DNA of 64,000 bases from Pseudaquabacterium terrae (GTDB lineage Bacteria > Pseudomonadota > Gammaproteobacteria > Burkholderiales > Burkholderiaceae_C). Shown here in pieces: positions 19,433 through 35,171 of the stretch. Numbering within the stretch: position 1 is the first letter of the stretch; the number at the start of each line of letters is the position of its first letter. The stretch covers positions 1 to 64,000 of the forward strand of contig NZ_JABRWJ010000013.1 of NCBI RefSeq assembly GCF_013266755.1. The letters run 5' to 3'. The position numbers were made by a program, and so were the translations under genes. The notes under the pieces were generated by a model. That model did no database searches. It was not told the DNA's origin and saw only the letters and a program-made list of their open reading frames with translations.

Positions 19433-19478
19433 TAAACGATCGTTCATTCACAATACGACGACGAGCGACGCCTGTCAA
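19433..19478 (-). promoter_or_regulatory. Promoter and AACGATCGTT operator of the SDR operon
   Basis: On the minus strand TTGACA (19478-19473), a 17-bp spacer and TATTGT (19455-19450) form a good sigma-70 promoter. The palindrome AACGATCGTT (19435-19444), within AATAAACGATCGTTCATTCA, covers the expected transcription start. The same core occurs at every major promoter of the 19-35 kb island. Confidence 0.8.
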
Positions 19479-19494
19479 GCGCGCCCGTGTGGTG

Positions 19495-20568
19495 TCAGGC
19501 GGCAGGGCGCGACAGCAGCGGTATGTCGAGTGCGCGGTACCACGCGGCCACGTGCGACTCGACGTCGCCCGGGACGACGATGGCCATGCGCATGCGCTGC
19601 AGCCCGAGCGAGCGGCTCACACGGCGCAGCAGGGCACGCCTCCACCAGCCGCGGCGCGTGGCGGCCAGGGCGCGGGCGTACGAGCGCCTTGCCCGCGGCG
19701 GCGCGTCGTTCATCGCCTGCTCCACCCGGTCGTGCAAGCGCGCCCAGAAGCGTGCCGGCGCGCGCACCATGTGCGGCGCCGCCTCGGCCAGGTCGTTGAA
19801 CACGGTCGACGAGCTCTCCGGAAAGTGCACCAGGACGCCGAGGGCCAGCATCGCCGCCAGCACGGCCACGCGCTCGCCGACCTGCATCAGCGGCTCGAAG
19901 GACAACACGTGGTCGCCGGAATCGAGCTTCATCCACTCGAGCGCCGACCACAACCGCACGAGCAGCTCGCCCTGGGTCACCGGCACCGCCGTTCCAGCGC
20001 CCGGCGCGAACAGTGCGATCGCGTCGTCCCGACCTTGGTCGATCCGCTCGTCGAAAAGGCGAGGGTGCTCGCGCGCGAGCCGAGTGCCGCTCGCGAGCCA
20101 GTCGTCGTAACGCACGATGCGGTCGTGCTCCGCCGCATGAAGGCCGTGCGACTCGAACGCGACCACCTGGCGCAACTGGAGGTCCGCGGCGTCGCTGCTG
20201 CGCACCTTGGCCAGTTGTTCGACCGTGTCGACAAAGACGATGCGCGCCGCGCTGCGCTGCAGCGCCAGCCCGGCCTCGGCCGCCGTCGCATGCGGCTCGA
20301 TGCCGTGCACGATGCCGCCGAGGGCCTGCGCCGCGAGCTCGACGACCAGCCACTCGGGGCGGTTCTCGGCGAGCACGGCCACCACGTCGCCGGGACCCAC
20401 GCCGGCGGCGGACATGGCCATCGCGATGGCGCGGGCATCCTCGAAGAACTGCCGCCACGACACCGTCGACCAGATGCCGCGCTGCTTGTAGCGCATCGCG
20501 GCGCGATCGCCTTGCTCGGCGCAGCGCTTCCGCCACAACTGCGGCAGGGTCGAAAAGTCGCGCGCCAT
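19495..20568 (-). CDS. Truncated AMP-binding (acyl-CoA ligase-like) protein
   Basis: The 357-residue protein resembles the N-terminal half of long-chain acyl-CoA ligases: LPQLWRKRCAEQGDRAAMRY, GVGPGDVVAVLAENRPEWLV, DHVLSFEPLMQVGERVAVLA and APARFWARLHDRV. Where a ligase has the P-loop SSGTTGxPK it has FAPGAGTAVPVTQGEL. The whole C-terminal adenylation and lid region is absent. It should not activate acids. Full-length versions of such genes often accompany LIV-type transporters. It starts one base after the binding-protein stop, as last gene of the liv-like operon. It may be a decayed gene or a substrate-binding accessory. Confidence 0.75.
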   Translation of the reverse strand: MARDFSTLPQLWRKRCAEQGDRAAMRYKQRGIWSTVSWRQFFEDARAIAMAMSAAGVGPGDVVAVLAENRPEWLVVELAAQALGGIVHGIEPHATAAEAGLALQRSAARIVFVDTVEQLAKVRSSDAADLQLRQVVAFESHGLHAAEHDRIVRYDDWLASGTRLAREHPRLFDERIDQGRDDAIALFAPGAGTAVPVTQGELLVRLWSALEWMKLDSGDHVLSFEPLMQVGERVAVLAAMLALGVLVHFPESSSTVFNDLAEAAPHMVRAPARFWARLHDRVEQAMNDAPPRARRSYARALAATRRGWWRRALLRRVSRSLGLQRMRMAIVVPGDVESHVAAWYRALDIPLLSRPAA

Positions 20569-20569
20569 G

Positions 20570-21763
20570 TCAGGACACGCCCTTGCTCGGATCGAGCACC
20601 GGCGAGCGCGGCACCCAGACACCCTCGACGACCTGCTCGACGCGCGTCCATTCCGGGCCGATGTGGTTGTCGACGAAGCGCTGGGTGTCGTAGGACGCCA
20701 GGCCCTTGAAGCTCGACGTCTGCAGCGCCTTGACGAGCTTGTCGGTCGTGACGTCCCGTCCGGCCCGGGTCAGCTCCTGCACGAACCAGCTCGCGTAGTC
20801 GTAGAAGGCCACCGAGATGTCGTCCGGCTCGCTGCCGAAGCGCTTGCGGTAGCTGTCGTAGAAGGACTTGAGCGCACCGGTGGCGTGTCGCGGCAAGGTG
20901 ATGCCCCAGGTGCCGCAGCCGTACATCCCCTCCACGGCCTGCTTGCCGAGCGCGACCGTCAGCCCGGCCCGCCCGGGGCTGGCCGTGAGCACGTTGACGC
21001 CGGCGAGGCCGAGCTTCTTCACCTCCGCCGCGACGGCGATGGTCTCGCGGGTGGTCGTGGCGGTGACGATCAGGTCGGCCTTGGCTGCCTGCATGCGCGA
21101 CACCTGCGACGACAGGTCGATGTCGCCGACCTTGTAGCTCGCTTCGGCCACCAGCGGCAGATTGCGCGCGGCGAGCGCGGCCTTGACGCCACGGGTCACC
21201 AGGTCGCCGAACGCGCCTTCCTGGTAGACGATGCCGACGCGGCGGCTGCCCAGATGCTCCACCGCCCAGCGCACGGCGGCGGAGGTCGTCGAGTCATAGT
21301 GCAGGTTGGTCGTGAACAGCAGCGGCGTGGTGCCTGCGGCCTGGCGCACGAGGGCGGAGGCGGCATAGGGCCCGAACGTGACCACACCCGCGTCGGCGAC
21401 CTTCTTCGCCGTGGCCACGCACGGCCCGGAGCCGAACGGGCACAGCATCGCGAAGATCTCGTCCTTGCGCAGCAGCTTGTCGACCGCGCGCACGGCCTGC
21501 GGCGGCTGGCTGGCGTTGTCCTCGATCACCAGCCGGAGCTTGCGGCCGTGGATGCCGCCGGCGTCGTTCGCCTCGTCGATGCGCATCTGGATGCCGTTGC
21601 GGATGAACGGCATCGCGACCGCCACGGGTCCGGACAGGTCGAGATGCGTACCGAGCACGATCTCCTTGTCGGAGACGCCGGCGGCGAGCGAGCGGGAACT
21701 CCACACCGCAGGGGCGGCGATGGCGGCAGTGGCCTTGAGGATCGAGCGGCGGTTCAGGCTCAT
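20570..21763 (-). CDS. LIV-type ABC transporter substrate-binding protein
   Basis: The 397-residue periplasmic binding protein (type I, LivK-like) has a twin-arginine-like leader (LNRRSILKATAAIAAPAVW) followed by IVLGTHLDLSGPVA. The ligand-lobe segments include NDAGGIHGRKLRLVIEDNAS and VYQEGAFGDLVTRGVKAAL. In catabolic clusters such proteins bring aromatic or aliphatic acids rather than amino acids to the membrane complex. It is the fifth gene of the operon LivH-LivM-LivG-LivF-binding protein-AMP-binding protein, and its start overlaps the LivF stop by four bases. Confidence 0.92.
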   Translation of the reverse strand: MSLNRRSILKATAAIAAPAVWSSRSLAAGVSDKEIVLGTHLDLSGPVAVAMPFIRNGIQMRIDEANDAGGIHGRKLRLVIEDNASQPPQAVRAVDKLLRKDEIFAMLCPFGSGPCVATAKKVADAGVVTFGPYAASALVRQAAGTTPLLFTTNLHYDSTTSAAVRWAVEHLGSRRVGIVYQEGAFGDLVTRGVKAALAARNLPLVAEASYKVGDIDLSSQVSRMQAAKADLIVTATTTRETIAVAAEVKKLGLAGVNVLTASPGRAGLTVALGKQAVEGMYGCGTWGITLPRHATGALKSFYDSYRKRFGSEPDDISVAFYDYASWFVQELTRAGRDVTTDKLVKALQTSSFKGLASYDTQRFVDNHIGPEWTRVEQVVEGVWVPRSPVLDPSKGVS

Positions 21764-22509
21764 GCGAGTCTCCGTGGCGAGGTGGGCGGCGACGAAGCGC
21801 CGAGGTAGAAGTCCTTGATGTCGGCGCGCTGGCGCAGCGCCTCGCAGGAGGCCGAGGCGGCGACGCGTCCGAGCTCGAGCACGTAGCCGTGGTCGGCGGT
21901 GTTCAGCGCGATGGAAGCGTTCTGCTCGACCACGAGCACGGCGATGCCGGCCTGCTCCCGGATGCGCCTGACGATGGCGAACACTTCCTTGGTGAACAGC
22001 GGCGACAGCCCGAGCGACGGCTCATCGAGCAGCAGCAGGCGCGGCTTGGCCATGTAGGCACGGCCGATGGCCAGCATCTGCTGCTCGCCACCGGAGAGCT
22101 GCCCGGCCGGTTGCCGATGGCGCTCCTGCAGGCGCGGGAACCACTCGTAGATCTGGTCGACGTCGCGCCGCACCGCGGGGTCACTGCGGCGGGCGAAGGC
22201 GCCCATCGCGAGGTTCTCCGACACGCTGAGGAACGGAAAGACCTGCCGCCCCTCGGGCACGAGGACGACGCCACTGCGGCAGACGGCATCGGCATCGAGG
22301 CCGCCGATCTCCTCGCCGTCGAGCCGGATGCTGCCCTTGTGCGGCGACACCACCCCGGCGATGGTGTTGAGCAGCGTCGTCTTGCCGGCACCGTTGGCGC
22401 CGAGCACCGTCACGATCTGGCCCGCGTGCACCTCCAGGCCGACGCCGTGGAGGGCTCGCACCGGGCCGTACCAGGTCTCGACGTCGCGCACTGACAGCAG
22501 CGTGGTCAT
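21760..22509 (-). CDS. LIV-type ABC transporter ATPase (LivF-like)
   Basis: The 249-residue ATPase shows Walker A GANGAGKTT, Q-loop region VLVPEGRQVFPFL, signature QLSGGEQQM, Walker B RLLLLDEPSLGL and H-loop VVEQNAS. Size and the EGRQVFPFLSV segment mark it as the shorter LivF-type partner. It forms a heterodimer with the LivG-like ATPase encoded immediately upstream (2-bp gap) to power uptake. Confidence 0.94.
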   Translation of the reverse strand: MTTLLSVRDVETWYGPVRALHGVGLEVHAGQIVTVLGANGAGKTTLLNTIAGVVSPHKGSIRLDGEEIGGLDADAVCRSGVVLVPEGRQVFPFLSVSENLAMGAFARRSDPAVRRDVDQIYEWFPRLQERHRQPAGQLSGGEQQMLAIGRAYMAKPRLLLLDEPSLGLSPLFTKEVFAIVRRIREQAGIAVLVVEQNASIALNTADHGYVLELGRVAASASCEALRQRADIKDFYLGASSPPTSPRRLA

Positions 22510-22511
22510 GC

Positions 22512-23357
22512 TCAGGTTCCCAGGTAGGCGGTGATGACGCGCGGGTCCGACTGCACCTCGGCCGGCGTGCCGATCGTCAGCACGCGGCCCTGGTCCATCA
22601 CGATCGCGCGCGTGGCGACCGACGACACCAGCGACATGTCGTGCTCGACCATCACCACGGTGATGCCGAGCTCGGCCCGGATGTCGTCGATCCAGCCGGC
22701 GAGCTGGCGGGTCTCCTCGGGGTTGAGGCCCGAGGCCGGCTCGTCGAGCAGCAGCAGGCGCGGTTCGGCGGCGAGCGCGCGGCCGAGCTCGACCACCTTG
22801 CGGATGCCATAGGGCAGCTCGCCCACCGGACGATGGCGCAAGGGGGCGAGATCGAGCAGGCGCACGACGTTCTCGACCCGCGCGCGGGTTTGTGCCTCCG
22901 CGCGCCGCACGGACGGCAGGTTCAGCATCTGCGCCAGCAGGCTGCCGTGCCCGGCGCGATGGCGGCCGAGCAGCAGGTTCTCGAGCACTGTCGCGCCATC
23001 GAACAGCTCGATGTTCTGGAACGTGCGGGCGATGCCGTGCCGCACGACGTCGTGCCGCGCCACGCGCGTGATGTCGCGGCCGTCGAAGTGGATGCTGCCC
23101 ATCGTCGGGTCGAACACGCGCGTGATCAGGTTCAGCACCGAGGTCTTGCCGGCGCCGTTGGGTCCGATGATGGCGAGGACTTCGCCGGGCTCGATCGTGA
23201 AGCTCACGTCGCGCACCGCCTGCACGCCGCCGAACGCGAGGCCGATCGAGCGGACCTCGAAGAATGCGGGGACCGCCGGGGACGCCGCAAGGGACGCTGC
23301 CGCGGTGACGGCCCGCGGCGCGATGGCGATGCTGCTCATGGCCAGGCGCGTGCTCAT
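22512..23357 (-). CDS. LIV-type ABC transporter ATPase (LivG-like)
   Basis: The 281-residue ATPase has Walker A GPNGAGKTS, Q-loop ARTFQNIELFDGATVLENLL, signature ELPYGIRKVVELGRAL (LPYG instead of LSGG, common in LivG), Walker B RLLLLDEPASGLNPEET and VVMVEHDMSLV. About 32 residues rich in Ala precede the usual start (FFEVRSIGLAFGG). The ATG at 23357 is supported by its ATGA overlap with the LivM stop, with ATG 23339 as an alternative. It partners the LivF-like protein. Confidence 0.93.
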   Translation of the reverse strand: MSTRLAMSSIAIAPRAVTAAASLAASPAVPAFFEVRSIGLAFGGVQAVRDVSFTIEPGEVLAIIGPNGAGKTSVLNLITRVFDPTMGSIHFDGRDITRVARHDVVRHGIARTFQNIELFDGATVLENLLLGRHRAGHGSLLAQMLNLPSVRRAEAQTRARVENVVRLLDLAPLRHRPVGELPYGIRKVVELGRALAAEPRLLLLDEPASGLNPEETRQLAGWIDDIRAELGITVVMVEHDMSLVSSVATRAIVMDQGRVLTIGTPAEVQSDPRVITAYLGT

Positions 23358-24424
23358 CGATTGCGCTCCGATTGCATGTAGACCTTGTTGCGGTGGCTGG
23401 CGGAGGCCGTCACGAGTGGGTACTGCGCGAGCCACTTGCGCAGCCGCATCCAGCGCCCGTTCAGACCCGTCGGCTCGAGCAGGACGAAGAAGGTCAGCAC
23501 GCCGCCGTAGATGAAGAGCTCGAGTCCGAGCTGCGAACCGAGCCGAGCCGGCAGCATTGGCTTGAGCAGCGAGATGAAGGAGGGCAGCAGCGCGATCAGG
23601 ATCGCGCCGAGGATCGCGCCGCGGAGGCTGCCCAGCCCGCCAATGAACACCATCAGCACCAGCTGCAGCGACAGCGCCAGGCCGAACGTCTCCGGCGTGA
23701 TGTATTGCGTGTAGTGCGACAGCAGGGCGCCCGCGATGCCGCAGATGGCCGCCGACAGGCCGAAGGCGAGGATCTTCGCGCGCGCCACGCGGATGCCCAG
23801 CGCTTGCGCCGCGGCCTCCGAGTCGCGCAGACCGACGAACGCACGGCCGGTGGCCGAGCGCATCAGGTTCAGCAGCACGAGAAGCACCGCAGTGAGCACG
23901 GCCAGGCACAGGAAGTAGAACGGCACGGTGCCGCCGAGGCCGAATCCGAACAGCGTTGGCTCCGGCACCGCCAGGCCGTTGTGCCCGCCGGTGACGCCCT
24001 TCCAGCGGCCCAGCGCGTGCTCGGTGATGATGGAGAACGCGAGCGTCACCATCGCCAGGTGCAGACCGGACACGCGTATCGCCGGAACGCCGATGGCCAG
24101 CCCGGCCAGCGCCGAGGCGACCGCTGCGCCGGCCAGGGACAGCGGAAGCGGCCATCCTGATGCCAGCAGCAGGGTGTGTACGTAGGCGCCGATGGCTACG
24201 AAAGCCGCCTGGCCGAGCGATACCTGCCCGGTGAAACCCGTGAGCGTCATGAGGCCCAGGCTCGCGACGCACATGATGAAGACGAAGCTCAGCTCGCCGA
24301 CGTAGAAGGCCGGCAACACGAAGGGCAGCGCGGCGAGCACGAGGGCGAGTGCGCCGTAGGCGCCGCGCTGCGCCGGTGTGCGCAGGAGTCGGCGCGCCTG
24401 GTCGTAATCCGTTTCGTAGGCCAT
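23354..24424 (-). CDS. LIV-type ABC transporter permease (LivM-like)
   Basis: The 356-residue permease has about nine hydrophobic helices. The LivM hallmark GFTGQVSLGQAAFVAIGAYV sits near residue 65 and the EAA-like cytoplasmic loop SEAAAQALGIRVARAKILAF past the middle. It ends with a basic tail. It pairs with the LivH-like permease three bases upstream to form the membrane channel. Confidence 0.93.
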   Translation of the reverse strand: MAYETDYDQARRLLRTPAQRGAYGALALVLAALPFVLPAFYVGELSFVFIMCVASLGLMTLTGFTGQVSLGQAAFVAIGAYVHTLLLASGWPLPLSLAGAAVASALAGLAIGVPAIRVSGLHLAMVTLAFSIITEHALGRWKGVTGGHNGLAVPEPTLFGFGLGGTVPFYFLCLAVLTAVLLVLLNLMRSATGRAFVGLRDSEAAAQALGIRVARAKILAFGLSAAICGIAGALLSHYTQYITPETFGLALSLQLVLMVFIGGLGSLRGAILGAILIALLPSFISLLKPMLPARLGSQLGLELFIYGGVLTFFVLLEPTGLNGRWMRLRKWLAQYPLVTASASHRNKVYMQSERNR

Positions 24425-24427
24425 GGC

Positions 24428-25315
24428 TCAGACCCTCCGCCCGTGCGCGTCGCCGAAGAGGCCCCGCGGTCGCAGCACGAGGGCGCCGATGAGCACGAGA
24501 TAGGCCATCACGTCCTTGAATCCGTCGGCAAGGTAGACGCCGGCGAACTGCTCGACCAGGCCGATGACCAGCCCGCCGGCGATCGCGCCCGGGGCGCTGC
24601 CGAACCCGCCGAGCACGAGCGCGGCCAGCGCCTTGAGCATGACGGTCCACAGGCTCAGGTCCACCAGCGAAATCGGCGCGAGCAGGAGGCCGCACAGCGC
24701 GGCGATGGCGCCGGACAGGGCCCACACCAGGGAGTTCAGGCGTTTCACGCGCACGCCGCACAAGTAGGCGGCGAGCTGGTTCTGCGCGCTCGCGTGAACG
24801 GCGATGCCGAGCGCCGTGTGACGCAGGAACACGTACAGCAGCAGCGTCACCGCGAGCGCGGCACCGACGATGACCAGACTGAGGCTGGAAAGCACCACGC
24901 CGGCGACCTCCGTCGAGCGGTCGGTCCACGGCGTCGCATAGGTGCGCGATTCGGGGCCGAACGACATGCTCACCGCGCCGCGGATCATGAAGCCGATGCC
25001 GATCGTCAGCATGATCCCGGCGAACTGCGGCTGGCCGACGATGCGCCGCATGACCCCGGCCTCGAGTGCCCAGCACAGCACGGCCACGAGGGCCATCACG
25101 CAGGGCAGCGCGAGCCAGAACGACATGCCGGCCCGGGTGATCAGCCCCCAGGCGACGAATGCCGAGAGCATGACGACGTCGCCATGAGCGAAGTTCATGA
25201 CCTCCGTGGCCTTGTAGCCCAGGACCAGTCCGAGGGCGACCAGACCGTAGATCGCACCGCTGGCCATGCCCTGGGCGGCCAGCTGCGCTGCCTGTGTCAG
25301 AAGGGGGTCCATCAT
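24428..25315 (-). CDS. LIV-type ABC transporter permease (LivH-like)
   Basis: The 295-residue permease begins with QLAAQGMASGAIYGLVALGL and KATEVMNFAHGDVVMLSAFV, the LivH signature, and carries ALGIAVHASAQNQLAAYLCG as the coupling loop. It is the first gene of the six-gene transporter operon. Two ATGs lie at 25315 and 25312. No Shine-Dalgarno is present, because the operator palindrome occupies the space five bases upstream of the start. Confidence 0.93.
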   Translation of the reverse strand: MMDPLLTQAAQLAAQGMASGAIYGLVALGLVLGYKATEVMNFAHGDVVMLSAFVAWGLITRAGMSFWLALPCVMALVAVLCWALEAGVMRRIVGQPQFAGIMLTIGIGFMIRGAVSMSFGPESRTYATPWTDRSTEVAGVVLSSLSLVIVGAALAVTLLLYVFLRHTALGIAVHASAQNQLAAYLCGVRVKRLNSLVWALSGAIAALCGLLLAPISLVDLSLWTVMLKALAALVLGGFGSAPGAIAGGLVIGLVEQFAGVYLADGFKDVMAYLVLIGALVLRPRGLFGDAHGRRV

Positions 25316-25320
25316 GAAAA

Positions 25321-25352
25321 AACGATCGTTAGGTGAACGAGACTTGAATATA
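25321..25352 (-). promoter_or_regulatory. Operator and -10 element of the liv-like operon
   Basis: AACGATCGTT (25321-25330) lies five bases before the LivH start. A good minus-strand -10, TATATT (25352-25347), sits upstream, with only a weak -35 match. The predicted leader is about 25 nt and consists mostly of the operator. Confidence 0.7.
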
Positions 25353-25390: not shown

Positions 25391-25439
25391 TTGACAGCGG
25401 CCGGAACGTGGATTAGCGTCCGTTCAGCAAACGATCGTT
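25391..25439 (+). promoter_or_regulatory. Promoter and operator of the acyl-CoA synthetase gene
   Basis: TTGACA (25391-25396), 17 bp and TAGCGT (25414-25419) form the promoter. AACGATCGTT (25430-25439) follows just past the expected start point. Together with the liv-like operator 100 bp away, it makes a divergent control region with two sites. Confidence 0.75.
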
Positions 25440-25460: not shown

Positions 25461-27089
<1,629 letters not shown>

Positions 27090-27140: not shown

Positions 27141-27959
27141 CTACTCTCGGTAGTAGACCATCTGGTGCGTGCTCGCCAGCAGCCGCTGCTGGTCGTCCCA
27201 GAGTTGCGCGGACTGATCGAAGTAGCCGTCGCGGAAATTCTGCGCGCGGGCGACCCCGAGCAACGGTCGATCGCCCAGTGCGATCAGCATTTGCGCGTCG
27301 GCGTGGAAGTAGATCGTCAGCGTGACCGTGCCGATCGGCACCCACAGTCGGCGACGGATGAAGATTCGCGGCATGAAGGTGTCGCACAAAGCCGTCAGCG
27401 ACGCATAGTCCAGCGGGCGCGGCGGGTCGTCGCGTACCCAGAGGCAACTCGTCGAGCTCGCCGCTTCGCCGCCGTCCCAGTCGCTCGGCATCTCGCCGGC
27501 CATCGTGCGCATCTCGTAGCGGCTCACCCAGGGCGGGCGGCCGGCGGAAGTTGCGCGTGCCAGCAGATCGAACGGCACGACCGGGGGCGGCGGCTCGGCC
27601 TCGGGCCGCGACCAGGTCGGGCGGCGCTTCGCAAAGACGGCGGTCGCCGTCGCGACCACGTCCCCGGACTGCGTTGCGACGATCGACCAGTGCTGCGTCG
27701 AGCGGTTGGTGCGCACGGGGTGGGCTGCGATCTCGTACACCCCGTCGGCGATCGCGCTGGCGAAGTTGATCGTGAATGCGACCGGATCCCCGAGGCGCGC
27801 CGGGTGCCGGAGCACGGACTGCATCAACGCCGCCGCGATCACGCCGCCGAAGGGACCGACCATGTTCGCGTACTGCGCGCTGGTGCCCGCGGCGAACCGT
27901 CCGTCGCCGAGGTCGTCGAGAGCGATCGCGCGATCGAATGGGTGCTCGGCTTCGGTCAT
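27141..27959 (-). CDS. Acyl-CoA thioesterase family protein
   Basis: The 272-residue protein has two hot-dog-fold halves. The first contains RFAAGTSAQYANMVGPFGGV and IAAALMQSVLRHP, with NRSTQHWSIVATQSGDVVAT. The second contains LWVRDDPPRPLDYASLTALC and TVTLTIYFHADAQML. It resembles TesB-like thioesterases, which release CoA from acyl-CoA and may relieve CoA trapping or act on an intermediate. It stands alone between a convergent synthetase and a divergent thiolase, with an operator-like sequence and a -10 directly upstream but no Shine-Dalgarno. Confidence 0.82.
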   Translation of the reverse strand: MTEAEHPFDRAIALDDLGDGRFAAGTSAQYANMVGPFGGVIAAALMQSVLRHPARLGDPVAFTINFASAIADGVYEIAAHPVRTNRSTQHWSIVATQSGDVVATATAVFAKRRPTWSRPEAEPPPPVVPFDLLARATSAGRPPWVSRYEMRTMAGEMPSDWDGGEAASSTSCLWVRDDPPRPLDYASLTALCDTFMPRIFIRRRLWVPIGTVTLTIYFHADAQMLIALGDRPLLGVARAQNFRDGYFDQSAQLWDDQQRLLASTHQMVYYRE

Positions 27960-27970
27960 GGGGATGTGTT

Positions 27971-27996
27971 CGTTAGCTTAACGATCTATCAGTATA
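27971..27996 (-). promoter_or_regulatory. Degenerate operator and -10 of the thioesterase gene
   Basis: CGTTAGCTTAACG (27971-27983) is an inverted repeat overlapping AACGATCTAT (27980-27989), a degraded form of the island's AACGATCGTT core. A minus-strand -10, TATACT (27996-27991), lies just upstream; the -35 is weak. Confidence 0.55.
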
Positions 27997-28033: not shown

Positions 28034-28083
28034 TTGACAGACGTGCAGGTTCTTGATTACTGTTCGTTCACCAAACGGTCGTT
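28034..28083 (+). promoter_or_regulatory. Promoter and operator variant of the first thiolase gene
   Basis: TTGACA (28034-28039) is followed by TACTGT at 18 bp (28058-28063). AACGGTCGTT (28074-28083) is one base off the island operator and sits at the expected start point. Confidence 0.68.
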
Positions 28084-28176: not shown

Positions 28177-29358
28177 ATGAGCCAAGACATCGTCATCTGT
28201 TCCCCCGTCCGCACCGCCATCGCCAGCTTCGGCGGCTCGCTCAAGGGCACAACCGCCGCGGCGTTGGGCGCGCATGTGATCACGGCCGCCGTGCGCCGCG
28301 CCAAGCTCGACCCGGTCCGGGTCGACACCGTCGTGATGGGCAACGTCATTCAGGCCGGCAACGGCATGAACGTCGCTCGGCAGGCCGCGGTCAGCGGCGG
28401 CCTGCCGGTCAGCGTGCCGGCGATGACAGTGAACCGCGTCTGCGGCTCGGGCGCGCAGGCGATCGCGACAGCCTACGCCGAGATCGCGGCCGGGCTGGCT
28501 CGCGTCGCGATCGCCGGCGGCATGGAGAACATGGACCGGGCGCCCTACCTGCTGCCCGGCATGCGCTTCGGCGCGCGACTGGGTCACGCCGAAGCCATCG
28601 ATGCGCTGCTGACGGACGGGCTGCACGACGCCTTCTCCGGCAAGCACTCGGGCTGGCACACCGAGGACCTTGTGGCCAAGTTCGATATCAGCCGCGAGGC
28701 GCAGGATGCGTTCGCGGCGCAGACGCAGCAGCGGTTTGCGGCGGCGCAGGCGGCGGGGCACTTCCAGGCCGAGATCGAGCCGTTCACGATCAAGACAGCG
28801 AAGGGCAGCGTGAGCTTCTCTGCGGACGAGTCGCCGCGCCCTGACACGACCGTGCAGACGCTGGCCCGGCTGAAGCCTGCGTTCCGTCCGGACGGCACGA
28901 TCACGGCGGGCAACGCGCCCGGCCTCAACGGCGGTGCTGCCGCGATGGTGGTATGCGATGCCGCTGCGGCGCGCGACCTGCAGCTCCAGCCGATGCTTGC
29001 GATCCGCGGCGTCGGCGTCGCGGCGGTCGAGCCCGGGTTCTTCGGCCTCGGCCCGTTGCCGGCGATCCGGCAGGCGCTGGAGCGCGCCGGCTGGAAGGTG
29101 GGCGACGTCGACCGCTACGAAGTCAACGAGGCGTTCGCGGCGATCGCGATTGCCGTGCGCGACGAGCTGAAGATCGATCCGGCCCGGTTCAATGTCGACG
29201 GCGGCGCGATTGCGCACGGGCACCCGATCGGGGCGACCGGCGCCATCCTCGTCACCAAGGTCGCACATGCGCTGCAGCGCACCGGCGAGAAGCGGGCCGT
29301 CGTGTCGCTGTGCATCGGCGGCGGCCAGGGCATCGCGCTGTGCCTGGAGCGGGTCTGA
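28177..29358 (+). CDS. Thiolase (acetyl-CoA acyltransferase) 1
   Basis: The 393-residue thiolase has the acyl-accepting cysteine in NRVCGSGAQAI near residue 89, the histidine loop GGAIAHGHPIGATGA and the second cysteine in SLCIGGGQGIAL. NEAFAAIAIAV is the usual preceding motif. It cleaves a 3-ketoacyl-CoA with CoA, or runs in the condensing direction. The start MSQDIVICSP at 28177 has SD GGAGG eight bases upstream, so the longer open frame is ignored. It is probably co-transcribed with the chaC gene behind a 60-bp repeat. Confidence 0.92.
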   Translation: MSQDIVICSPVRTAIASFGGSLKGTTAAALGAHVITAAVRRAKLDPVRVDTVVMGNVIQAGNGMNVARQAAVSGGLPVSVPAMTVNRVCGSGAQAIATAYAEIAAGLARVAIAGGMENMDRAPYLLPGMRFGARLGHAEAIDALLTDGLHDAFSGKHSGWHTEDLVAKFDISREAQDAFAAQTQQRFAAAQAAGHFQAEIEPFTIKTAKGSVSFSADESPRPDTTVQTLARLKPAFRPDGTITAGNAPGLNGGAAAMVVCDAAAARDLQLQPMLAIRGVGVAAVEPGFFGLGPLPAIRQALERAGWKVGDVDRYEVNEAFAAIAIAVRDELKIDPARFNVDGGAIAHGHPIGATGAILVTKVAHALQRTGEKRAVVSLCIGGGQGIALCLERV

Positions 29359-29365
29359 AGCCGCC

Positions 29366-29425
29366 ATGAGCCCGCCGGGCCGCCCCAAGGGCGAATACCG
29401 GAGGGCACAGCCCGAAGGTACCCCA
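29366..29425 (+). repeat. 60-bp interspersed repeat, single copy
   Basis: The unit starts ATGAGCCCGCCGGGCCGCCC and ends CCCGAAGGTACCCCA. It matches the tandem units at 63742-63861 (read on the minus strand) at about 53 of 60 positions. It is open in frame with the chaC start (MSPPGRPKGEYRRAQPEGTP then MSTLVL), and GAAGG near its end can serve as the Shine-Dalgarno for ATG 29426. It fills the gap between thiolase and chaC exactly. Confidence 0.85.
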
Positions 29426-30091
29426 ATGAGCACACTCGTGCTGACCCGGGAGCGGCTGCGCGAGACGCCGCTCGACACGCTTTTCGCCGGCCTGCCCCCG
29501 GGCTACCGCATCCGCAGCGAAGCGGAGCTGCGCTCGTCGCTCGAGGGCGTGCTCGAAGCTCACGATCGCGGCACGGATGTCCACGTGTTCGGGTACGGGT
29601 CGCTGATGTGGAACCCGGCGTTCGAGTTCAGCGATGCGGCTCGGGCACGGGTGCTCGGCTGGCATCGGCGCTTCTGCCTTCGCCTCGTCATCGCGCGCGG
29701 GACACCGTCGGTGCCGGGGGCCATGCTCGCACTCGACCGCGGCGGCTCGTGTGACGGCATGCTGTTCCGCATCCCGGCCGCCAAGGCATTTGCAGAGTTG
29801 CAGCTGCTGTGGAAGCGCGAGATGGCGACCGGGGCCTACGAGGCGAGGTGGATGGCCGTGCGGGCAGGCGAGCGACCGGTGCGCGCACTGACCTTCGTTG
29901 TCAACCGCGCGCATGAGCGCTACATCGGCGGCCTGCCGATCGAGCAGGTCGCCCACATGATCTGCACGGGCCAAGGCGCGCTCGGAACCAATCGCGCCTA
30001 TTTCGAGGACATGCTGCGCTCGCTGGCCGCGATGGGTGTGAGAGACGCCGGCATGGAGCGGCTGCGACGCGCCATCCTGGCGCGAAGCTAG
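29426..30091 (+). CDS. ChaC-like gamma-glutamylcyclotransferase
   Basis: The 221-residue protein has the ChaC nucleotide-like loop VFGYGSLMWNPAFEF near residue 50, then RVLGWHRRFCL and the C-terminal segment YIGGLPIEQVAHMICTGQGA. The family cleaves glutathione to 5-oxoproline and Cys-Gly. Here it follows a thiolase under the same promoter. An in-frame start at 29366 inside the 60-bp repeat would add 20 residues, but homology begins after 29426, so ATG 29426 is chosen. Its link to acyl-CoA metabolism is unclear; glutathione turnover may serve the GST-kappa-like isomerase nearby. Confidence 0.88.
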   Translation: MSTLVLTRERLRETPLDTLFAGLPPGYRIRSEAELRSSLEGVLEAHDRGTDVHVFGYGSLMWNPAFEFSDAARARVLGWHRRFCLRLVIARGTPSVPGAMLALDRGGSCDGMLFRIPAAKAFAELQLLWKREMATGAYEARWMAVRAGERPVRALTFVVNRAHERYIGGLPIEQVAHMICTGQGALGTNRAYFEDMLRSLAAMGVRDAGMERLRRAILARS

Positions 30092-30143: not shown

Positions 30144-30192
30144 TTGACACGCCGCATGGGTCGACCTATATTGTCTTTACTAAACGATCGTT
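30144..30192 (+). promoter_or_regulatory. Promoter and operator of the acyl-CoA dehydrogenase gene
   Basis: TTGACA (30144-30149), 17 bp and TATATT (30167-30172) form the strongest promoter in the window. AACGATCGTT (30183-30192) covers +4 to +13. ATG 30205 has no Shine-Dalgarno; the operator takes that space. Confidence 0.85.
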
Positions 30193-30204
30193 AGCGAATA
30201 AACC

Positions 30205-31986
30205 ATGAGCCAGTACAAGACCCCGCTGCGCGACTTCCAGTTCGTGCTGCACGAGTTGCTCGAGACCTCCGCAGTGATGCAGTCCTGCGGCCGCGACGAG
30301 TTCGACCGCGACACGATCGACCAGGTGCTGTCGGCCGCCGGACAGTTCGGCGAGGAGGTCATCTCGCCGCTGAACGCCCGCGGCGACGAGGAGGGCTGCA
30401 CGCTGCGCGACGGCGTCGTCACGACGCCGTCGGGCTTCCGCGAGGCGTACCAGCAATACATCGAGAACGGTTGGAGCGCGCTCGGCTGCAGCACCGAGCA
30501 CGGCGGCTCCGCGTTCCCCACGGTGGTGGAGAACGCGGTCAGCGAGATCTTCGGCGCGGCCAACATGGCATTGACCTCGTACCCCGGCATGTCGAATGCC
30601 ACCTACGTCAACCTACGCGCCAACGGATCGCCGGAACTCAAGGCCATGTACCTGCCCAAGCTGGCATCCGGGCAATGGGCCGGCACCATGTGCCTGACCG
30701 AGCCGCACGCCGGCACGGATCTGGGCCTGCTGCGAACGCGTGCCGAGTGGCAGGCCGACGGCAGCTATCGAATCACCGGCTCGAAGATCTTCATCTCCGG
30801 CGGCGAGCACGACCTTACCGAGAACATCGTGCATCTCGTGCTGGCCCGGCTGCCTGATGCGCCGACGGGAGTGAAGGGCATCTCGCTGTTCCTGGTGCCC
30901 AAGGAGATCCCGAACGCCGACGGCACCCTCGGCCGGCGCAACGCCGTCGTGTGCGGGTCCATCGAGCACAAGATGGGCATCCACGGCAACTCCACGTGCA
31001 CGATGAACTTCGATGGGGCGACCGGCTGGCTCGTGGGCGATGCGCACAAGGGCCTGGCCGGCATGTTCGTGCAGATGAACCACCTCCGGCTGGGCGTGGG
31101 CATCACCGCCATCGGCGTGATGGAGGCGGCCTGGCAGAAGTCGCTGCGCTACGCCAACGAGCGCGTGCAGGGCCGCGCGCCGGGATCCGGCACGGTGTCG
31201 GGGGCGGACCCGATCCTGCTGCACGCCGATGTGCGCCGCATGCTGCTGACGCAGAAGGCGTCCGTCGAAGGCCTGCGGGCGCTGGCGCTGTGGGCCTCCC
31301 AGCTGATCGACCTGAGCCACGCGCATCCCGACGCCGAACGGCGCCGCGACGCGGGCGCGCTGCTCGCGCTGCTGACGCCCGTGGTCAAGGCCATGGCCAG
31401 CGATACCGCACTCGAGTCGACGCTCACGGCGATGCAGGTGCTCGGCGGGCACGGCTACGTGCGCGACAACGGCGTTGAGCAGCACGTGCGCGACGTGCGC
31501 ATCGTCGGGCTCTACGAGGGCACGAACGGGGTGCAGGCAATGGACCTGCTCGGCCGCAAGGTACTGGCCGACGGCGGGCTGCGCATGGCCGGCTTCATCG
31601 AGCATGTCTCCAGGCAGGCAGAGGCCCAGCGGGACCAGCCGGGCCTGCAGGAGTTCGCCGCACCCGTGGTCGAGCTGGCACAGCGCCTCGCGGCGGTGAC
31701 ATCGGAACTGGTGGAGCTGTCGACGGGCGACGTGCATGCCGCCGGCGCGGCCAGCGTGCCGTACCTGCGGCTGGTGGGTCACCTGGCGCTGTCGCACGTG
31801 TGGTTGCGCGCGGTGCAGGTGGCGCTGCCGAAGAGCGGCTCGGGCGACCCCTTCTACGCTTCGAAGGTCGCCACGGCACGCTTCTACTTGCGCCGCATGA
31901 TGCCGCAGTGCCTGGCGCTGTGCGAGGAGATCCGCGCCGGTGCTGCGCCCGTGATGGACCCGTCGATCCTGTTGAGCACGCCATGA
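30205..31986 (+). CDS. Acyl-CoA dehydrogenase with C-terminal extension
   Basis: The 593-residue flavoenzyme is longer than ordinary acyl-CoA dehydrogenases (about 380). The core has MCLTEPHAGTDLGLL, the flavin segment ISGGEHDL, GIHGNSTCTMNFDGATG and the catalytic-region motif LYEGTNGVQAMDLLGRKVL. About 140 further residues form the helical C-terminal domain seen in FadE/DmdC-type enzymes. It introduces the double bond into the acyl-CoA made by the synthetase. An ATGA overlap couples it to a 73-residue protein. The acid chain type cannot be read from sequence. Confidence 0.92.
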   Translation: MSQYKTPLRDFQFVLHELLETSAVMQSCGRDEFDRDTIDQVLSAAGQFGEEVISPLNARGDEEGCTLRDGVVTTPSGFREAYQQYIENGWSALGCSTEHGGSAFPTVVENAVSEIFGAANMALTSYPGMSNATYVNLRANGSPELKAMYLPKLASGQWAGTMCLTEPHAGTDLGLLRTRAEWQADGSYRITGSKIFISGGEHDLTENIVHLVLARLPDAPTGVKGISLFLVPKEIPNADGTLGRRNAVVCGSIEHKMGIHGNSTCTMNFDGATGWLVGDAHKGLAGMFVQMNHLRLGVGITAIGVMEAAWQKSLRYANERVQGRAPGSGTVSGADPILLHADVRRMLLTQKASVEGLRALALWASQLIDLSHAHPDAERRRDAGALLALLTPVVKAMASDTALESTLTAMQVLGGHGYVRDNGVEQHVRDVRIVGLYEGTNGVQAMDLLGRKVLADGGLRMAGFIEHVSRQAEAQRDQPGLQEFAAPVVELAQRLAAVTSELVELSTGDVHAAGAASVPYLRLVGHLALSHVWLRAVQVALPKSGSGDPFYASKVATARFYLRRMMPQCLALCEEIRAGAAPVMDPSILLSTP

Positions 31987-32204
31987 TCGCCCATGACTTC
32001 GTTGCCCGTCCCGTCGCGCTGTGGGCGCTGCAGTTCCCCTCGCTGCGCGCCGATGCCGGCGCCTACGTCTTCCCCTGCGACGAGCAGGGCAACGTGCCGC
32101 TGCACGACCTCGGCCGCCGGGCCCTGCTGGACTACCTCTTCGCGAGGCACATGGTGGGCCGCACGCTCGCTCGGCCGCGCCTGCTCGCCGTTGCGCAACA
32201 CTGA
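31983..32204 (+). CDS. Small protein coupled to the acyl-CoA dehydrogenase
   Basis: The 73-residue protein starts MIAHDFVARPVALWALQFPS, with its ATG overlapping the dehydrogenase stop. It continues with PCDEQGNVPLHDLGRRALLD and YLFARHMVGRTLARPRLLAV. It has no signal or membrane segment. The strict overlap and protein-like composition argue that it is real. I do not recognise a named family; an accessory or assembly role for the dehydrogenase is only a guess. Confidence 0.65.
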   Translation: MIAHDFVARPVALWALQFPSLRADAGAYVFPCDEQGNVPLHDLGRRALLDYLFARHMVGRTLARPRLLAVAQH

Positions 32205-32218
32205 ACGATCGAAAGGGT

Positions 32219-32228
32219 AACGATCGTT
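32219..32228. promoter_or_regulatory. AACGATCGTT operator upstream of tetR
   Basis: A perfect copy of the island operator lies 45 bp before the tetR start. A partial copy, GAACGATCGAAA, lies about 15 bp further upstream and overlaps the end of the small protein gene. A possible -10, CATACT (32238-32243), follows, so the site would cover the -35. Autoregulation is expected. Confidence 0.8.
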
Positions 32229-32272
32229 TGTCTATGGCATACTGTGCGCCGTAGACCTCACGAAGGAACCCC

Positions 32273-32839
32273 ATGCGCTACTCGGCCACCCACAAGCAGG
32301 AAACGCGCGAGAAGCTCATCAACACGAGCCGCGAGATCGCGAAGAAGGACGGGTTCGGCGGCACCGGCGTGGATGCCTTCATGAAGGCCATCGGCCTGAC
32401 CGGCGGCGCCTTCTACACGCATTTCGAGTCGAAGGCGGAGCTGTTCGCCGAGTTGGTCGAGCACGAGCTCGAGTTCAGCACCGAGATGCTCGCCGGCGAC
32501 GAGGACGCGCCGGCGGACCACGTGGCGCGCAAGCTCCGCAGCTACCTGAGCAGCGCGCACGCGCTGCACCCCGAAACCGGCTGCGTGCTGCCGACACTCG
32601 GCCCGGAGATCGCGCGCGCGTCACCCGAGGTCAAGGCCCGGGTGGAGAAATCGCTCAAGCGGCTGCGCGACGCATGGTCCGAGCGGCTGGACGATGACGA
32701 CGCCGGTTGGGCGCTGCTCGCGCAGTGCGTGGGCGCCTTGATCCTGGCGCGTGTGGTCGAGAGCGAGCGCACCCGGCGCGAAATCCTCGGCGCGAGCCGC
32801 CGCTTTCTCGAACGGGCAGAGAAGGCGCCGCGGAAGTAG
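32273..32839 (+). CDS. TetR-family regulator, probable master repressor of the acyl-CoA island
   Basis: The 188-residue protein has an HTH at about residues 8-55 (GTGVDAFMKAIGLTGGAFYTHF, SKAELFAELV). A ligand domain contains HPETGCVLPTLGPEIARASP, the same subgroup feature as the TetR at 9752. Its own promoter carries the palindrome found at seven other promoters in the island, so it is the best candidate for the protein binding that motif. The effector would be expected to be an acyl-CoA or the imported acid. SD AAGGA lies five bases before ATG 32273. Confidence 0.88.
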   Translation: MRYSATHKQETREKLINTSREIAKKDGFGGTGVDAFMKAIGLTGGAFYTHFESKAELFAELVEHELEFSTEMLAGDEDAPADHVARKLRSYLSSAHALHPETGCVLPTLGPEIARASPEVKARVEKSLKRLRDAWSERLDDDDAGWALLAQCVGALILARVVESERTRREILGASRRFLERAEKAPRK

Positions 32840-32929
32840 CACGGCGATCAGCGGGGCCAACCCGAACGTGCAGCTGCTCGCGTCTTCCACGCCGAGCTCG
32901 TTGCGCCACGAACGCCCGCTCGAACGCTC

Positions 32930-33330
32930 TCATGGCAGCGTTTCGACGGTGCCCACTGCTGCGCCGGGCGCGGCTGCGGAAAGGCGCACGGGCACGACCT
33001 TGTGAAACGGCGTGTCTGCGATCGGGTCGCGGTGCGCTGCGTCCGTGAGCCAGTTCAGCGCGGGTCCGCGAAGCACGCGCCGCCCGTCTCGTCCGGATGC
33101 GACTGGCCATAGCCGTGAGGAAGGATGAAGTGGCCGCGGCGCATCGAGGCGTTTGCATGGGCGCGAACGACAAGGCGGCGCGCGCCGGCTCTCGACCACC
33201 ACGCATCCATGGTCGGCAATGCCGAGGTCCGCCAGGTCCTGCGGGTGGACGTACATGGCGCCGTCGGGGTCGGCGCGCTTGGCGGCCGGGTCACGCAGGA
33301 TCTGGTTCGCGTTCTGCAACCGCCGTTGTC
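32930..33330 (-). pseudogene. C-terminal remnant of a molybdopterin oxidoreductase
   Basis: Reading the minus strand, one frame gives LQNANQILRDPAAKRADPDG and AMYVHPQDLADLGIADHG. A second frame takes over with RAHANASMRRGHFILPHGYG. The first frame returns with GPALNWLTDAAHRDPIADTP and FHKVVPVRL. This is the molybdopterin-dinucleotide-binding C-terminus of a DMSO-reductase-family enzyme, broken by at least two frameshifts and lacking all the catalytic N-terminal part. It abuts the thiolase stop. The stretch 32840-32929 shows nothing recognisable. Confidence 0.82.
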
Positions 33331-33333
33331 GAC

Positions 33334-34518
33334 CTAGGCTACTTCGAACAGCCCGGCCGCGCCCATGCCGCCGCCGATGCACATCGTGACGACCACGTAG
33401 CGGGCGTTGCGGCGCTTGCCTTCGATCAGCGCGTGGCCCACCAGGCGCGAGCCAGTCATGCCGTAGGGATGGCCGATCGAGATGCCGCCGCCATTGACGT
33501 TGAGCTTGGCGGGGTCGATGCCCAGTTGATCTCGGCAATGGACGACCTGGCAGGCGTAGGCCTCGTTGAGCTCCCACAGGCCGATGTCGTCGATCTTCAG
33601 CCCGTGCGTCTTCAGCAGCTTGGGGACTGCGAACACCGGGCCGATGCCCATCTCCTCGGGCGGGCAGCCGCTCACGGCGATGCCCCGGTAGATGCCCAGC
33701 GGCCTGAGCCCGCGCCGCTCGGCCACCGCACGCTCGACCAGCACGCAGGCGCTGGCGCCGTCCGAGAGCTGGCTCGCGTTGCCCGCCGTGACGACGCCGC
33801 CGTCGATGACGGGCTTGAGGCTGGTCAGGCCTTCGATGGTCGTATCCGGGCGGTTGCCTTCGTCGCGCGCGAGCGTGACTTCGCGGTACGAGAGCGCGCC
33901 GGTGACCTTGTCCGCTACGGCCATGGTCGCCGTGATCGGCACGATCTCGGCATCGAACAGCTTCCTTTCCTGGGCGCGGGCGGTGCGGCGCTGGGCCTCG
34001 AGGGAGTATTCGTCCTGCACCTCTCGTGAGATGCCGTACTTGCGCGAGACGAACTCGGCCGTCTGCAGCATCGGCATGTAGGTGTGTTCGACCCGGGCAA
34101 CCAGCTTCGGGTCGGCCTGTTCGCTCACCAGTTTGAAGTAGGGGCCCTGCACTGCGGAGATGTTCTCCTGGCCGCCGCCGATGGTGACGTCCATGCCGTC
34201 GACGATGATCTGCTTGGCCGCGATGGCCACCGCCATCAGGCCCGAGGCGCACTGGCGGTCGACGGTCTGTCCGGGCACCGACAGCGGCAGTCCGGCGGCA
34301 AGGGCGGACAGCCGGCCGATGTTCATGCCCGACGTGCCGCCGGGCATGGAGGTGCCGATGACCACGTCGTCGACTTCCGCGGGCTCGATGCCTGCGCGCG
34401 CCACGGCGTGTCCGAGCACATGGCCCATCATCGTGGGCGACTTGATGTTGTTCAGCGAGCCGCGAAAGGCGCGGCCGATGCCCGTGCGGGCGGTGGAGAC
34501 GATGACGGCTTCTCTCAC
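33334..34518 (-). CDS. Thiolase (acetyl-CoA acyltransferase) 2
   Basis: The 394-residue thiolase has the reactive cysteine in [15 protein letters not shown] near residue 87, [29 protein letters not shown] and [16 protein letters not shown]. It differs clearly from the first thiolase, with GHPYGMTG in place of GHPIGATG, so the two likely act on different chain lengths or branched intermediates. Its start overlaps the stop of the HCCA-isomerase-like gene by four bases, placing both under one operator-controlled promoter. Confidence 0.92.
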
Positions 34519-35105
34519 GCGAGCTTCTCCTTGATCAGGTCGAGACGGTCCTGGCCGAAGAACATCTCGTCGCCGACGAAGGTGGTGGGCGCCCCGAAGA
34601 CGCCGCGGCGTACCGCTTCTTCCGTGGTGGCGCGCAGAGCCGCCTTCACGTCAGGGGCGTTGACGAGCGCGTCCACCTCGGCCGGCGGAAAACCTGCGTC
34701 CGCGAGCACCTGGCTGGTCAACTGCGCGTCGTTGAGGTCCAGCGGCTCGATCCACAACGCCTTGAAGGCGGCCGCGAGGAAGTCCTGCAAGCGCTGGGGC
34801 ATGCGCAACTGAACACCGGTAGCCACGCGCATGAGGTGCAGCGTGATGATCGGGAAGTACGGATTGATCACGAGTGGCACGCCGTAGCGCTTCGCGTAGC
34901 GCAGGTAATCCATGTTCACGTAGCGGCCCTTGGCGGGAACGGTCACCGGCGACGCATTGCCGGTCGCCTGGAACACGCCGCCGAGCAGCATCGGCCGATA
35001 GACGAGCGTCGCGCCCGCATCGGCACAGATCTTCGGCAACTGCGTCCAGGCCAGGTACGACGCGGGACTGCCGACGTCGAAGAAGAATTCCACGGTCTTG
35101 CTCAT
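34515..35105 (-). CDS. 2-hydroxychromene-2-carboxylate isomerase-like protein (DsbA/GST-kappa fold)
   Basis: The 196-residue protein starts [20 protein letters not shown], with the serine that activates glutathione in the GST-kappa/HCCA isomerase group instead of a CxxC. It ends with [20 protein letters not shown], carrying the cis-proline loop. Family members isomerise aromatic ring-cleavage products; many in fatty-acid clusters have no known substrate. Start 35105 has SD GGAGG eight bases upstream, so a longer frame is rejected. First gene of the two-gene operon with thiolase 2. Confidence 0.87.
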
Positions 35106-35122
35106 AGGGTTGGCCTCCATTA

Positions 35123-35171
35123 AACGAGCGTTTACCAAACGAAGACTATGCTATGGTGTGGCCGATGTCAA
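35123..35171 (-). promoter_or_regulatory. Promoter and operator of the isomerase-thiolase operon
   Basis: On the minus strand TTGACA (35171-35166), 17 bp and TAGTCT (35148-35143) precede AACGAGCGTT (35132-35123), one base off the island core and with perfect TAAACG/CGTTTA arms. It again covers the expected start region. Confidence 0.75.

What the first reader, a model, noticed from the sequence alone, without database searches (positions are those of the whole stretch)
19433..35171. One palindrome, AACGATCGTT, at eight control sites: a probable single TetR regulon
Exact copies lie at 19435, 25321, 25430, 30183 and 32219. One-base variants lie at 28074 (AACGGTCGTT) and 35123 (AACGAGCGTT), and a degraded form at 27980. 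All sit in promoter regions of the acyl-CoA island. Genes covered: SDR/nitronate monooxygenase/hydratase, LIV-type transporter, acyl-CoA synthetase, thioesterase, both thiolases, acyl-CoA dehydrogenase, HCCA-isomerase-like protein and the TetR itself. This defines a self-contained uptake and degradation system for an unidentified carboxylic acid.
Basis: partly seen in the sequence, partly recalled or inferred. Interest (0 to 1): 0.78.

Follow-up and report, generated by a model that had tools for sequence, protein, structure and literature searches.

The report
Conserved TetR switch for acid breakdown
A repeated DNA sign-post marks eight gene switches in one stretch of a bacterial genome, and other bacteria from Variovorax to Pseudomonas carry the same sign-post beside the same repressor gene, so this is very probably one repressor-controlled set of genes for taking up and breaking down an unidentified organic acid.

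Summary
Confirmed and strengthened. AACGATCGTT is exact at the five stated places; the 8.04 Mb genome has one other exact copy. The operator appears to be longer: two AACGnnCGTT palindromes with centres 15 bp apart (25 bp). 25 of 26 loci with a close TetR relative have the palindrome within 200 bp upstream, against 0 of 27 with other TetR genes (one of the 27 is a borderline relative). So the adjacent TetR (32273-32839) is very probably the regulator. Five of eight sites follow a TTGACA promoter and cover its start region: repression by blocking polymerase (inferred). The recurring core is TetR, SDR and a kappa-GST-like protein; beta-oxidation genes, a LIV transporter and varying ligases are added. 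The sixth exact copy (before etfB) belongs to a different conserved motif. Substrate and inducer unknown. An apparently undescribed member of a known kind.

The parts
19420..19444 (-). operator of the SDR-NMO-ECH operon (palindrome 19435-19444; partner palindrome weak), 5 bp after a TTGACA-17-TATTGT promoter
   Evidence: matrix score 19.5, rank 8
25321..25345 (-). tandem operator of the LIV transporter operon (palindrome 25321-25330 plus half-site)
   Evidence: matrix score 26.9
25415..25439 (+). tandem operator of the acyl-CoA ligase gene (palindrome 25430-25439)
   Evidence: matrix score 31.7, rank 1
   Evidence: matrix score 24.1, rank 6
28059..28083 (+). tandem operator of the thiolase A - ChaC genes
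   Evidence: matrix score 29.1
30168..30192 (+). operator of the acyl-CoA dehydrogenase gene (palindrome 30183-30192; partner weak)
   Evidence: matrix score 21.8
32204..32228 (+). tandem operator of the TetR gene (palindromes 32204 and 32219), 44 bp before its start; probable autoregulation
   Evidence: matrix score 26.1
35123..35147 (-). tandem operator of the HCCA-isomerase-like / thiolase B operon; the MarR gene starts on the other side
   Evidence: matrix score 27.4
32273..32839 (+). TetR-family regulator, proposed repressor of the set
   Evidence: Pfam TetR_N 4.8e-9; relatives with the same operator; AF2 model pLDDT 86.4
16857..17624 (-). enoyl-CoA hydratase/isomerase
   Evidence: Pfam ECH_1 3.7e-48
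17655..18665 (-). NMO / FabK-like flavoprotein; nearest solved chains 6e2a (nitronate monooxygenase) and 2gjl (PA1024)
   Evidence: Pfam NMO 2.6e-61; 4.4e-114 and 7.7e-114
18683..19414 (-). SDR, the most conserved enzyme of the set
   Evidence: Pfam adh_short 7.9e-35; 73-85% identical in the TetR-relative loci where it was found
19495..20622 (-). short AMP-binding protein without the C-terminal domain (true start not settled; similarity begins at about residue 18-24)
   Evidence: Pfam AMP-binding 1.2e-28; relatives 41-50% in L010, L012, L051
20570..21763 (-). LIV-type substrate-binding protein
   Evidence: NCBIfam PRK15404 1.1e-21, below its cut-off
21760..22509 (-). ABC ATPase (LivF-like)
   Evidence: translation; relatives in place in L010, L012, L051; no family search run on it
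22512..23357 (-). ABC ATPase (LivG-like)
   Evidence: translation; relatives in L010, L012, L051; no family search run on it
23354..24424 (-). permease (LivM-like)
   Evidence: translation; relatives in L010, L012, L051; no family search run on it
24428..25315 (-). permease (LivH-like)
   Evidence: Pfam BPD_transp_2 6.2e-38
25461..27089 (+). acyl-CoA ligase of the family named 3-(methylthio)propionyl-CoA ligase
   Evidence: NCBIfam NF005426, 939 bits against cut-off 822
27141..27959 (-). acyl-CoA thioesterase
   Evidence: Pfam 4HBT_3C 1.8e-24 and 4HBT_3 3.2e-15
28177..29358 (+). thiolase A
   Evidence: NCBIfam TIGR01930 420 bits, cut-off 240.55
29426..30091 (+).
   Evidence: Pfam ChaC 5.2e-39 on the ORF 29192-30091; start; relatives in L010, L051, L161
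30205..31986 (+). acyl-CoA dehydrogenase with PF12806 C-terminal domain
33334..34518 (-). thiolase B
   Evidence: NCBIfam TIGR01930 392 bits, cut-off 240.55
34515..35138 (-). HCCA-isomerase / kappa-GST-like protein (DSBA fold, [10 protein letters not shown] and no CxxC there); the start is probably the internal Met at residue 12
   Evidence: Pfam DSBA 7e-40; PDB relatives HCCA isomerase and GST kappa
35153..35689 (+). MarR-family regulator; relatives beside the TetR in L012 and L051
   Evidence: Pfam MarR 2.3e-9

Best explanation
The eight sites are operators of one autoregulated TetR-family repressor encoded at 32273-32839. The operator is a pair of AACGnnCGTT palindromes with centres 15 bp apart (25 bp); some promoters keep both palindromes, some one palindrome plus half-sites. 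Without inducer, dimers (probably two, cooperatively) sit over the -10 and start region of target promoters and block RNA polymerase. A pathway metabolite, most likely an acyl-CoA or reactive unsaturated intermediate, binds the C-terminal pocket and releases the repressor, switching on uptake (LIV transporter), CoA activation (ligase), a beta-oxidation spiral (acyl-CoA dehydrogenase, hydratase, SDR, thiolases), a thioesterase and an accessory glutathione-linked part (kappa-GST-like protein, ChaC). Shown by sequence: sites, promoter geometry, gene families, conservation of the operator with the TetR. Inferred: binding, two dimers, repression, inducer class, roles of single enzymes. The confidence given is for one regulon under this TetR; the inducer class is a guess.
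For: Sites exact and nearly confined to this stretch. Matrix from 31 distinct sites of other genomes' loci (25 loci scanned, 21 gave sites): the eight best positions of the window are the eight sites (31.7 to 19.5); then shifted registers of the same sites and 4967 (12.3), next unrelated 2.0; reversed-window maximum 5.0. Matrix from 8 sites of 7 loci labelled Pseudomonas: the same eight on top (29.2 to 19.2), reversed maximum 9.9. 25 of 26 loci with close TetR relatives have the palindrome (at most 1 mismatch) within 200 bp upstream of TetR, expected 0.066 loci; 0 of 27 other TetR loci have it in either 200-bp flank, and no matrix score of 12 or more in 91,337 positions of those. Operators recur before the same genes elsewhere: SDR, LivH, ChaC, GST-like gene, FadD/ACAD. 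TTGACA begins 39-40 bp before the palindrome at FadD, thiolase A, ACAD and the GST-like gene, 34 at SDR.
Against: No binding or expression data. LivH and thioesterase promoters have no TTGACA at that distance. One of the 26 loci (L100, 52% identical TetR, no SDR or GST-like match) has no site, and L023 (41% identical, counted among the 27) has none either; L101-L103, with TetR only 40-44% identical, were counted among the 26 because they came from the stricter 1e-40 search. Many of the 26 are close kin (six Pseudomonas, three Cupriavidus-type), so they are not 26 independent cases. Operators 19420 and 30168 have one good palindrome. The template used to pick training sites was suggested partly by the window's own 32204/32219 pair, though no window sequence was in training. 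The role of the MarR is untested.
Confidence: 0.9

Rival explanations
1. The sites belong to another regulator, for instance the MarR at 35153, the TetR-like gene at 16134, or a general fatty-acid regulator of the FadP kind whose motif has a similar core.
For: A similar core (ACGATCGT) inside a longer conserved motif stands before etfB in this genome and in relatives, among them G003, which has the exact 10-mer there but no TetR match better than 8.9e-25. A published TetR-family regulator, FadP, is proposed to control fatty-acid degradation in Burkholderiales (passages of PMC5343134 and PMC12543098). MarR relatives sit beside the TetR in L012 and L051.
Against: The etfB motif has AAAATaGcACGAtCGTtCGATTTT-like flanks that the window sites lack, and by eye no 15-bp tandem. 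A MarR match was found in 2 of the distinct loci compared (L012, L051; flanks differ in length), the operator in 25 of 26. In the six Pseudomonas loci the operator lies between TetR and SDR, with no match to the MarR or to the TetR at 16134 in the stretch held.
Confidence: 0.05
2. The TetR acts as an activator or dual regulator rather than a simple repressor.
For: Not excluded by sequence; the site for the TetR gene itself lies upstream of its own -10 (by eye).
Against: In four target promoters the palindrome starts 10 bp after the -10-like hexamer and the partner position overlaps it, a position typical of repressor sites (general knowledge).
Confidence: 0.04
3. The palindromes are chance, or copies of one promoter multiplied by local duplication, without a common regulator.
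For: Several promoters share TTGACA and CGTTCACCA-like upstream sequence.
Against: Flanks otherwise differ, target genes are unrelated families, and the motif is conserved at corresponding promoters in other genera.
Confidence: 0.01

Closest known systems
FadP (TetR family, betaproteobacterial fatty-acid degradation; Kazakov 2009, not held, known here through passages of PMC5343134 and PMC12543098)
   Same: TetR-family regulator of many beta-oxidation operons in Burkholderiales; unknown inducer
   Different: FadP is described with 12 operons and 27 genes throughout the R. solanacearum genome (PMC12543098 passage); here eight local operators, another gene set, and relatives in Pseudomonas. FadP's motif was not seen; that the etfB motif is FadP's is inference.
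LiuR / LiuQ, PsrA, FadR regulons
   Same: regulators of acyl-CoA catabolism in Proteobacteria (PMC5343134 passages)
   Different: LiuR is MerR and FadR GntR; [quoted passage not shown] their motifs were not compared here
AcuR and NemR
   Same: AcuR is the best NCBIfam match (44.5 bits, cut-off 247); NemR among structural matches (4yze_D, TM 0.78)
   Different: far below the family cut-off; targets differ (recalled)
P. aeruginosa TetR of PDB 2fd5 (PA3133, name recalled)
   Same: closest solved structure by profile (9e-21) and by fold (8.7e-7)
   Different: 27% identical; no known role used here
P. aeruginosa PA1024 and its neighbourhood (neighbour genes recalled)
   Same: the NMO-like protein matches PA1024, an NADH:quinone oxidoreductase whose genome context is said to suggest a part in fatty-acid catabolism (PMC10033279 passage)
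   Different: no operator test was made in P. aeruginosa

Membership tests
TetR-family transcriptional regulator | N-terminal TetR HTH, all-helical fold | tested here: met
   Pfam TetR_N 4.8e-9; 10-helix AF2 model matching solved TetR proteins
TetR-family transcriptional regulator | palindromic operator near its own gene | tested here: met
   window and 25 of 26 loci with close relatives
TetR-family transcriptional regulator | binding to operator and release by ligand | not testable with these tools
   needs EMSA or reporter
FadP regulon | FadP motif at the sites, or FadP orthology of this TetR | not testable with these tools
   FadP motif and sequence not available; window sites differ from the etfB-type motif in flanks and tandem
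AcuR (NF051457) | score above curated cut-off | tested here: not met
   44.5 bits against 247
3-(methylthio)propionyl-CoA ligase (NF005426) for the ligase | score above curated cut-off | tested here: met
   939 against 822; a family name, not a tested substrate
Kappa-class GST / HCCA isomerase | DSBA fold with Ser in place of the CxxC | tested here: met
   that this Ser is catalytic is recalled
Kappa-class GST / HCCA isomerase | glutathione-dependent activity | not testable with these tools
   needs assay

The most novel reading that the evidence does not exclude
TetR, SDR and kappa-GST-like protein form a portable control-and-chemistry cassette for CoA-dependent degradation of acids that pass through a glutathione-dependent isomer or adduct; ChaC then recycles or trims the glutathione part, and the repressor senses that electrophilic intermediate. 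Different genomes plug in different ligases and transporters, and one Cupriavidus genome keeps three copies.
Probability: 0.25. Interest if true: 0.65.

Novelty: new member of a known kind. Interest (0 to 1): 0.5.

Why it matters
It gives a defined repressor, operator and gene set that recur from Variovorax and Cupriavidus to Pseudomonas, for a catabolic route whose substrate is unknown. The operator can be used to find further copies in sequenced genomes, and the varying ligases and transporters beside the recurring core offer a way to deduce the substrates. The recurrent glutathione-linked genes point to an uncommon chemistry in a beta-oxidation setting.

Tried and rejected
Sixth exact genome copy (C45:147116) as a regulon member: it lies before etfB, which would fit, but the promoter carries a different, longer motif, seen by eye in 14 of the 15 upstream stretches printed (L064 lacks it), also in genomes without a close TetR relative; rejected. 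Site 4967: matrix score 12.3, before an ArsR-rhodanese gene; left out. L136 in this genome (C1:1081141, score 13.7): its place among the listed ORFs gave no clear target; left out. ORF 35686-37860 with a weak phage-integrase match: it overlaps a TonB receptor on the other strand; dropped. HIP/steroid-like pathway (recalled KstR2 analogy: NMO, SDR, hydratase, thiolase): considered from memory, not tested. Methylthiopropionate as substrate from the ligase's name: not accepted, because thiolases and a LIV transporter do not follow from it and the adjacent ligase differs between loci. Invariant C104 (17 of 17 aligned) as a thiol sensor: the GC pair also occurs in 2fd5 and 3dpj, so it is not diagnostic. 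Not examined: most of the 87 plasmid records with a TetR match (84 under 60% identity; of the three at 60-80% two were fetched, L050 and L051). Literature, listings only: the 10-mer (11 papers, none on this by title), LiuQ/TetR (33), HCCA isomerase with TetR and beta-oxidation terms (35: none; 41, 67), PA1024 (40), FadP (42), ChaC with GST (62), kappa GST with TetR (83) showed no description of this regulon in the rows shown (capped lists); passages were read in PMC5343134, PMC12543098 and PMC10033279. Only open-licence PMC papers are held.
Full report
Observation. AACGATCGTT is exact at 19435, 25321, 25430, 30183 and 32219, has one mismatch at 28074 and 35123 and two at 27980. The whole genome (8,039,486 bases, 56 contigs, unnamed) has 6 exact copies; 5 are these, and the reversed pattern has 1. 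With one mismatch allowed the genome has 97 places (6 exact included; reversed control 20), so the 10-mer with a mismatch is weak evidence alone.

Operator form. In the six Pseudomonas loci L014-L019 two palindromes stand 15 bp apart between the TetR and SDR genes, as do 32204 and 32219 in the window. Read this way, 25321, 25430, 28074 and 35123 carry a half-site 15 bp from the palindrome: CGTTN5AACGN2CGTT has 4 exact copies in the genome, all four at these places; with one mismatch there are 27 places in all (4 exact included), and 42 for the reversed pattern. TCGTTN5AACGA has 3 copies, at 25326, at 27970 (the 'degraded' site) and at C45:268097; reversed control 1.

Independent test. In 25 loci of other genomes I took every 25-mer matching at least 13 of the 16 fixed positions of AACGNNCGTTN5AACGNNCGTT (32 sites, 31 distinct; 4 loci, L009, L093, L098 and L099, gave none) and built a symmetrised matrix. 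On the window its eight best positions are 25415, 28059, 35123, 25321, 32204, 27965, 30168 and 19420 (31.7 to 19.5): the eight sites. Then come shifted registers of the same sites and 4967 (12.3); the next unrelated position scores 2.0, and the reversed window reaches 5.0. The template was partly suggested by the window; its sequence was not in training. With 8 sites from 7 loci labelled Pseudomonas (L011, L014-L019) the same eight come out on top (29.2 to 19.2; reversed maximum 9.9).

Which regulator. Close TetR relatives were collected with the search for related loci (13 loci), from plasmid records (2 loci, L050 and L051) and from whole genomes by a 1e-40 search (13 of 299 genomes of the family matched, the window's own included). 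Of 26 such loci (TetR 40-74% identical), 25 have the palindrome with at most one mismatch within 200 bp upstream of TetR (expected 0.066 loci); L100 has none. Of 27 loci with weaker TetR matches (L023-L049) none has it in either 200-bp flank, and the matrix finds no score of 12 or more in their 91,337 positions; L027 has a one-mismatch copy farther away. Two cautions: the line between the groups is an E-value (L023, 41% identical at 1.1e-36, fell among the 27 and has no site; L101-L103, 40-44%, fell among the 26 and have one), and several of the 26 are close kin. In 30 other stretches of the window's own genome, fetched for partial pattern matches, the matrix gave one hit of 12 or more (L136, 13.7) in 89,769 positions. 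The HTH region is strongly conserved among the relatives.

Regulon across genomes. TetR, SDR (73-85% identical) and the HCCA-isomerase-like protein recur together in most of the loci. Exceptions: L012 shows neither SDR nor GST-like gene on its 10.8 kb contig, L009 no GST-like gene, L100 neither, and in L007, L008 and L013 the GST-like gene in the cluster is only 34-36% identical. Operators stand before SDR, TetR, the GST-like gene, LivH, ChaC and FadD/ACAD genes in different loci. In Variovorax L051 SDR-NMO, thiolase B, ACAD and the LIV genes are all present, with operators before ChaC, between GST-like gene and SDR, before LivH and before TetR. The C. lacunae genome has three TetR copies with operators (L008, L159, L160); L160 carries NMO, ACAD, thiolase B, a 70% identical ligase, GST-like gene, TetR and SDR. 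The adjacent ligase is only 24-30% identical in L007, L008, L010 and L051, so substrates probably differ. Against: L052 and L053 have the SDR but no TetR match and no matrix hit of 12 or more (two one-mismatch 10-mers in L053).

Promoters and mechanism. TTGACA starts 39-40 bp before the palindrome at FadD, thiolase A, ACAD and the GST-like gene and 34 bp at SDR; LivH and thioesterase lack it. -10-like hexamers (TATTGT, TAGCGT, TACTGT, TATATT, TAGTCT) follow at 17-18 bp (read by eye). At these five promoters the operator covers the -10 and start region; blocking of polymerase is inferred. Binding, cooperativity and inducer are not shown.

Chemistry. Ligase, acyl-CoA dehydrogenase, hydratase, SDR, two thiolases and a thioesterase make a plausible beta-oxidation set with uptake by a LIV-type transporter; that the SDR serves as the 3-hydroxyacyl-CoA dehydrogenase is a guess. 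The NMO-like protein is nearest to 6e2a (nitronate monooxygenase) and 2gjl (PA1024); PA1024 is described as an NADH:quinone oxidoreductase (PMC10033279, passage seen). ChaC (29426-30091) lies behind thiolase A; relatives were found in 2 of 23 loci searched (L010, L051) and in L161 directly behind a second TetR relative of the L007 genome. The GST-like protein has [10 protein letters not shown] without CxxC, and its solved relatives are HCCA isomerases and kappa GSTs. A glutathione-dependent step is therefore a reasonable lead, not a result.

Comparison. FadP, LiuQ and PsrA are TetR-type regulators of acyl-CoA genes in Proteobacteria (PMC5343134 and PMC12543098, passages seen). The sixth genome copy of the 10-mer, before etfB, lies in a longer motif conserved in relatives and may be FadP's (inference; its motif was not seen, and the 2009 paper is not held). 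In the rows listed by my paper searches I saw no description of this TetR or operator; closed papers and RegPrecise could not be searched.

Verdict. The finding is real, the single-regulon reading is well supported, and the operator is better described as a 25-bp tandem. It is a conserved, apparently undescribed member of a known kind, with an open question about substrate and the glutathione link.

Noticed in passing
29426-30091 (+): ChaC-family gene behind thiolase A, with relatives in the related clusters L010, L051 and L161.
   Followed up: partly
19495-20622 (-): AMP-binding protein of about 350 residues without the usual C-terminal domain, conserved at the end of the LIV genes in L010, L012 and L051.
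   Followed up: partly
G000:C45:147116 (L006, L054): Conserved palindromic motif AAAATaGcACGAtCGTtCGATTTT before etfB in most relatives printed, plus TTTACGTAAAC nearer the gene in some; probably sites of other acyl-CoA regulators.
   Followed up: partly
L008, L159, L160 (one Cupriavidus genome): Three separate copies of the TetR-SDR-GST-like system with operators in one genome; in L159 the GST-like gene matches in two pieces and in L158 an SDR match looks like a remnant.
   Followed up: partly
4967 and 4988-5641 (+): ArsR-rhodanese fusion gene with an AATGATCGTT inverted repeat in its promoter, probably its own operator.
   Followed up: no
9752-16790: RND efflux set (pump, membrane-fusion protein, outer-membrane factor) with a TetR gene at 16134-16790 (families read by eye from the translations) and another TetR domain in the ORF 9752-11038.
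   Followed up: no
36844-61950: Polysaccharide-use genes: TonB receptor, GH31, GH127, GH2, alpha-galactosidase, acetylesterase, ROK regulator and MFS transporter.
   Followed up: no
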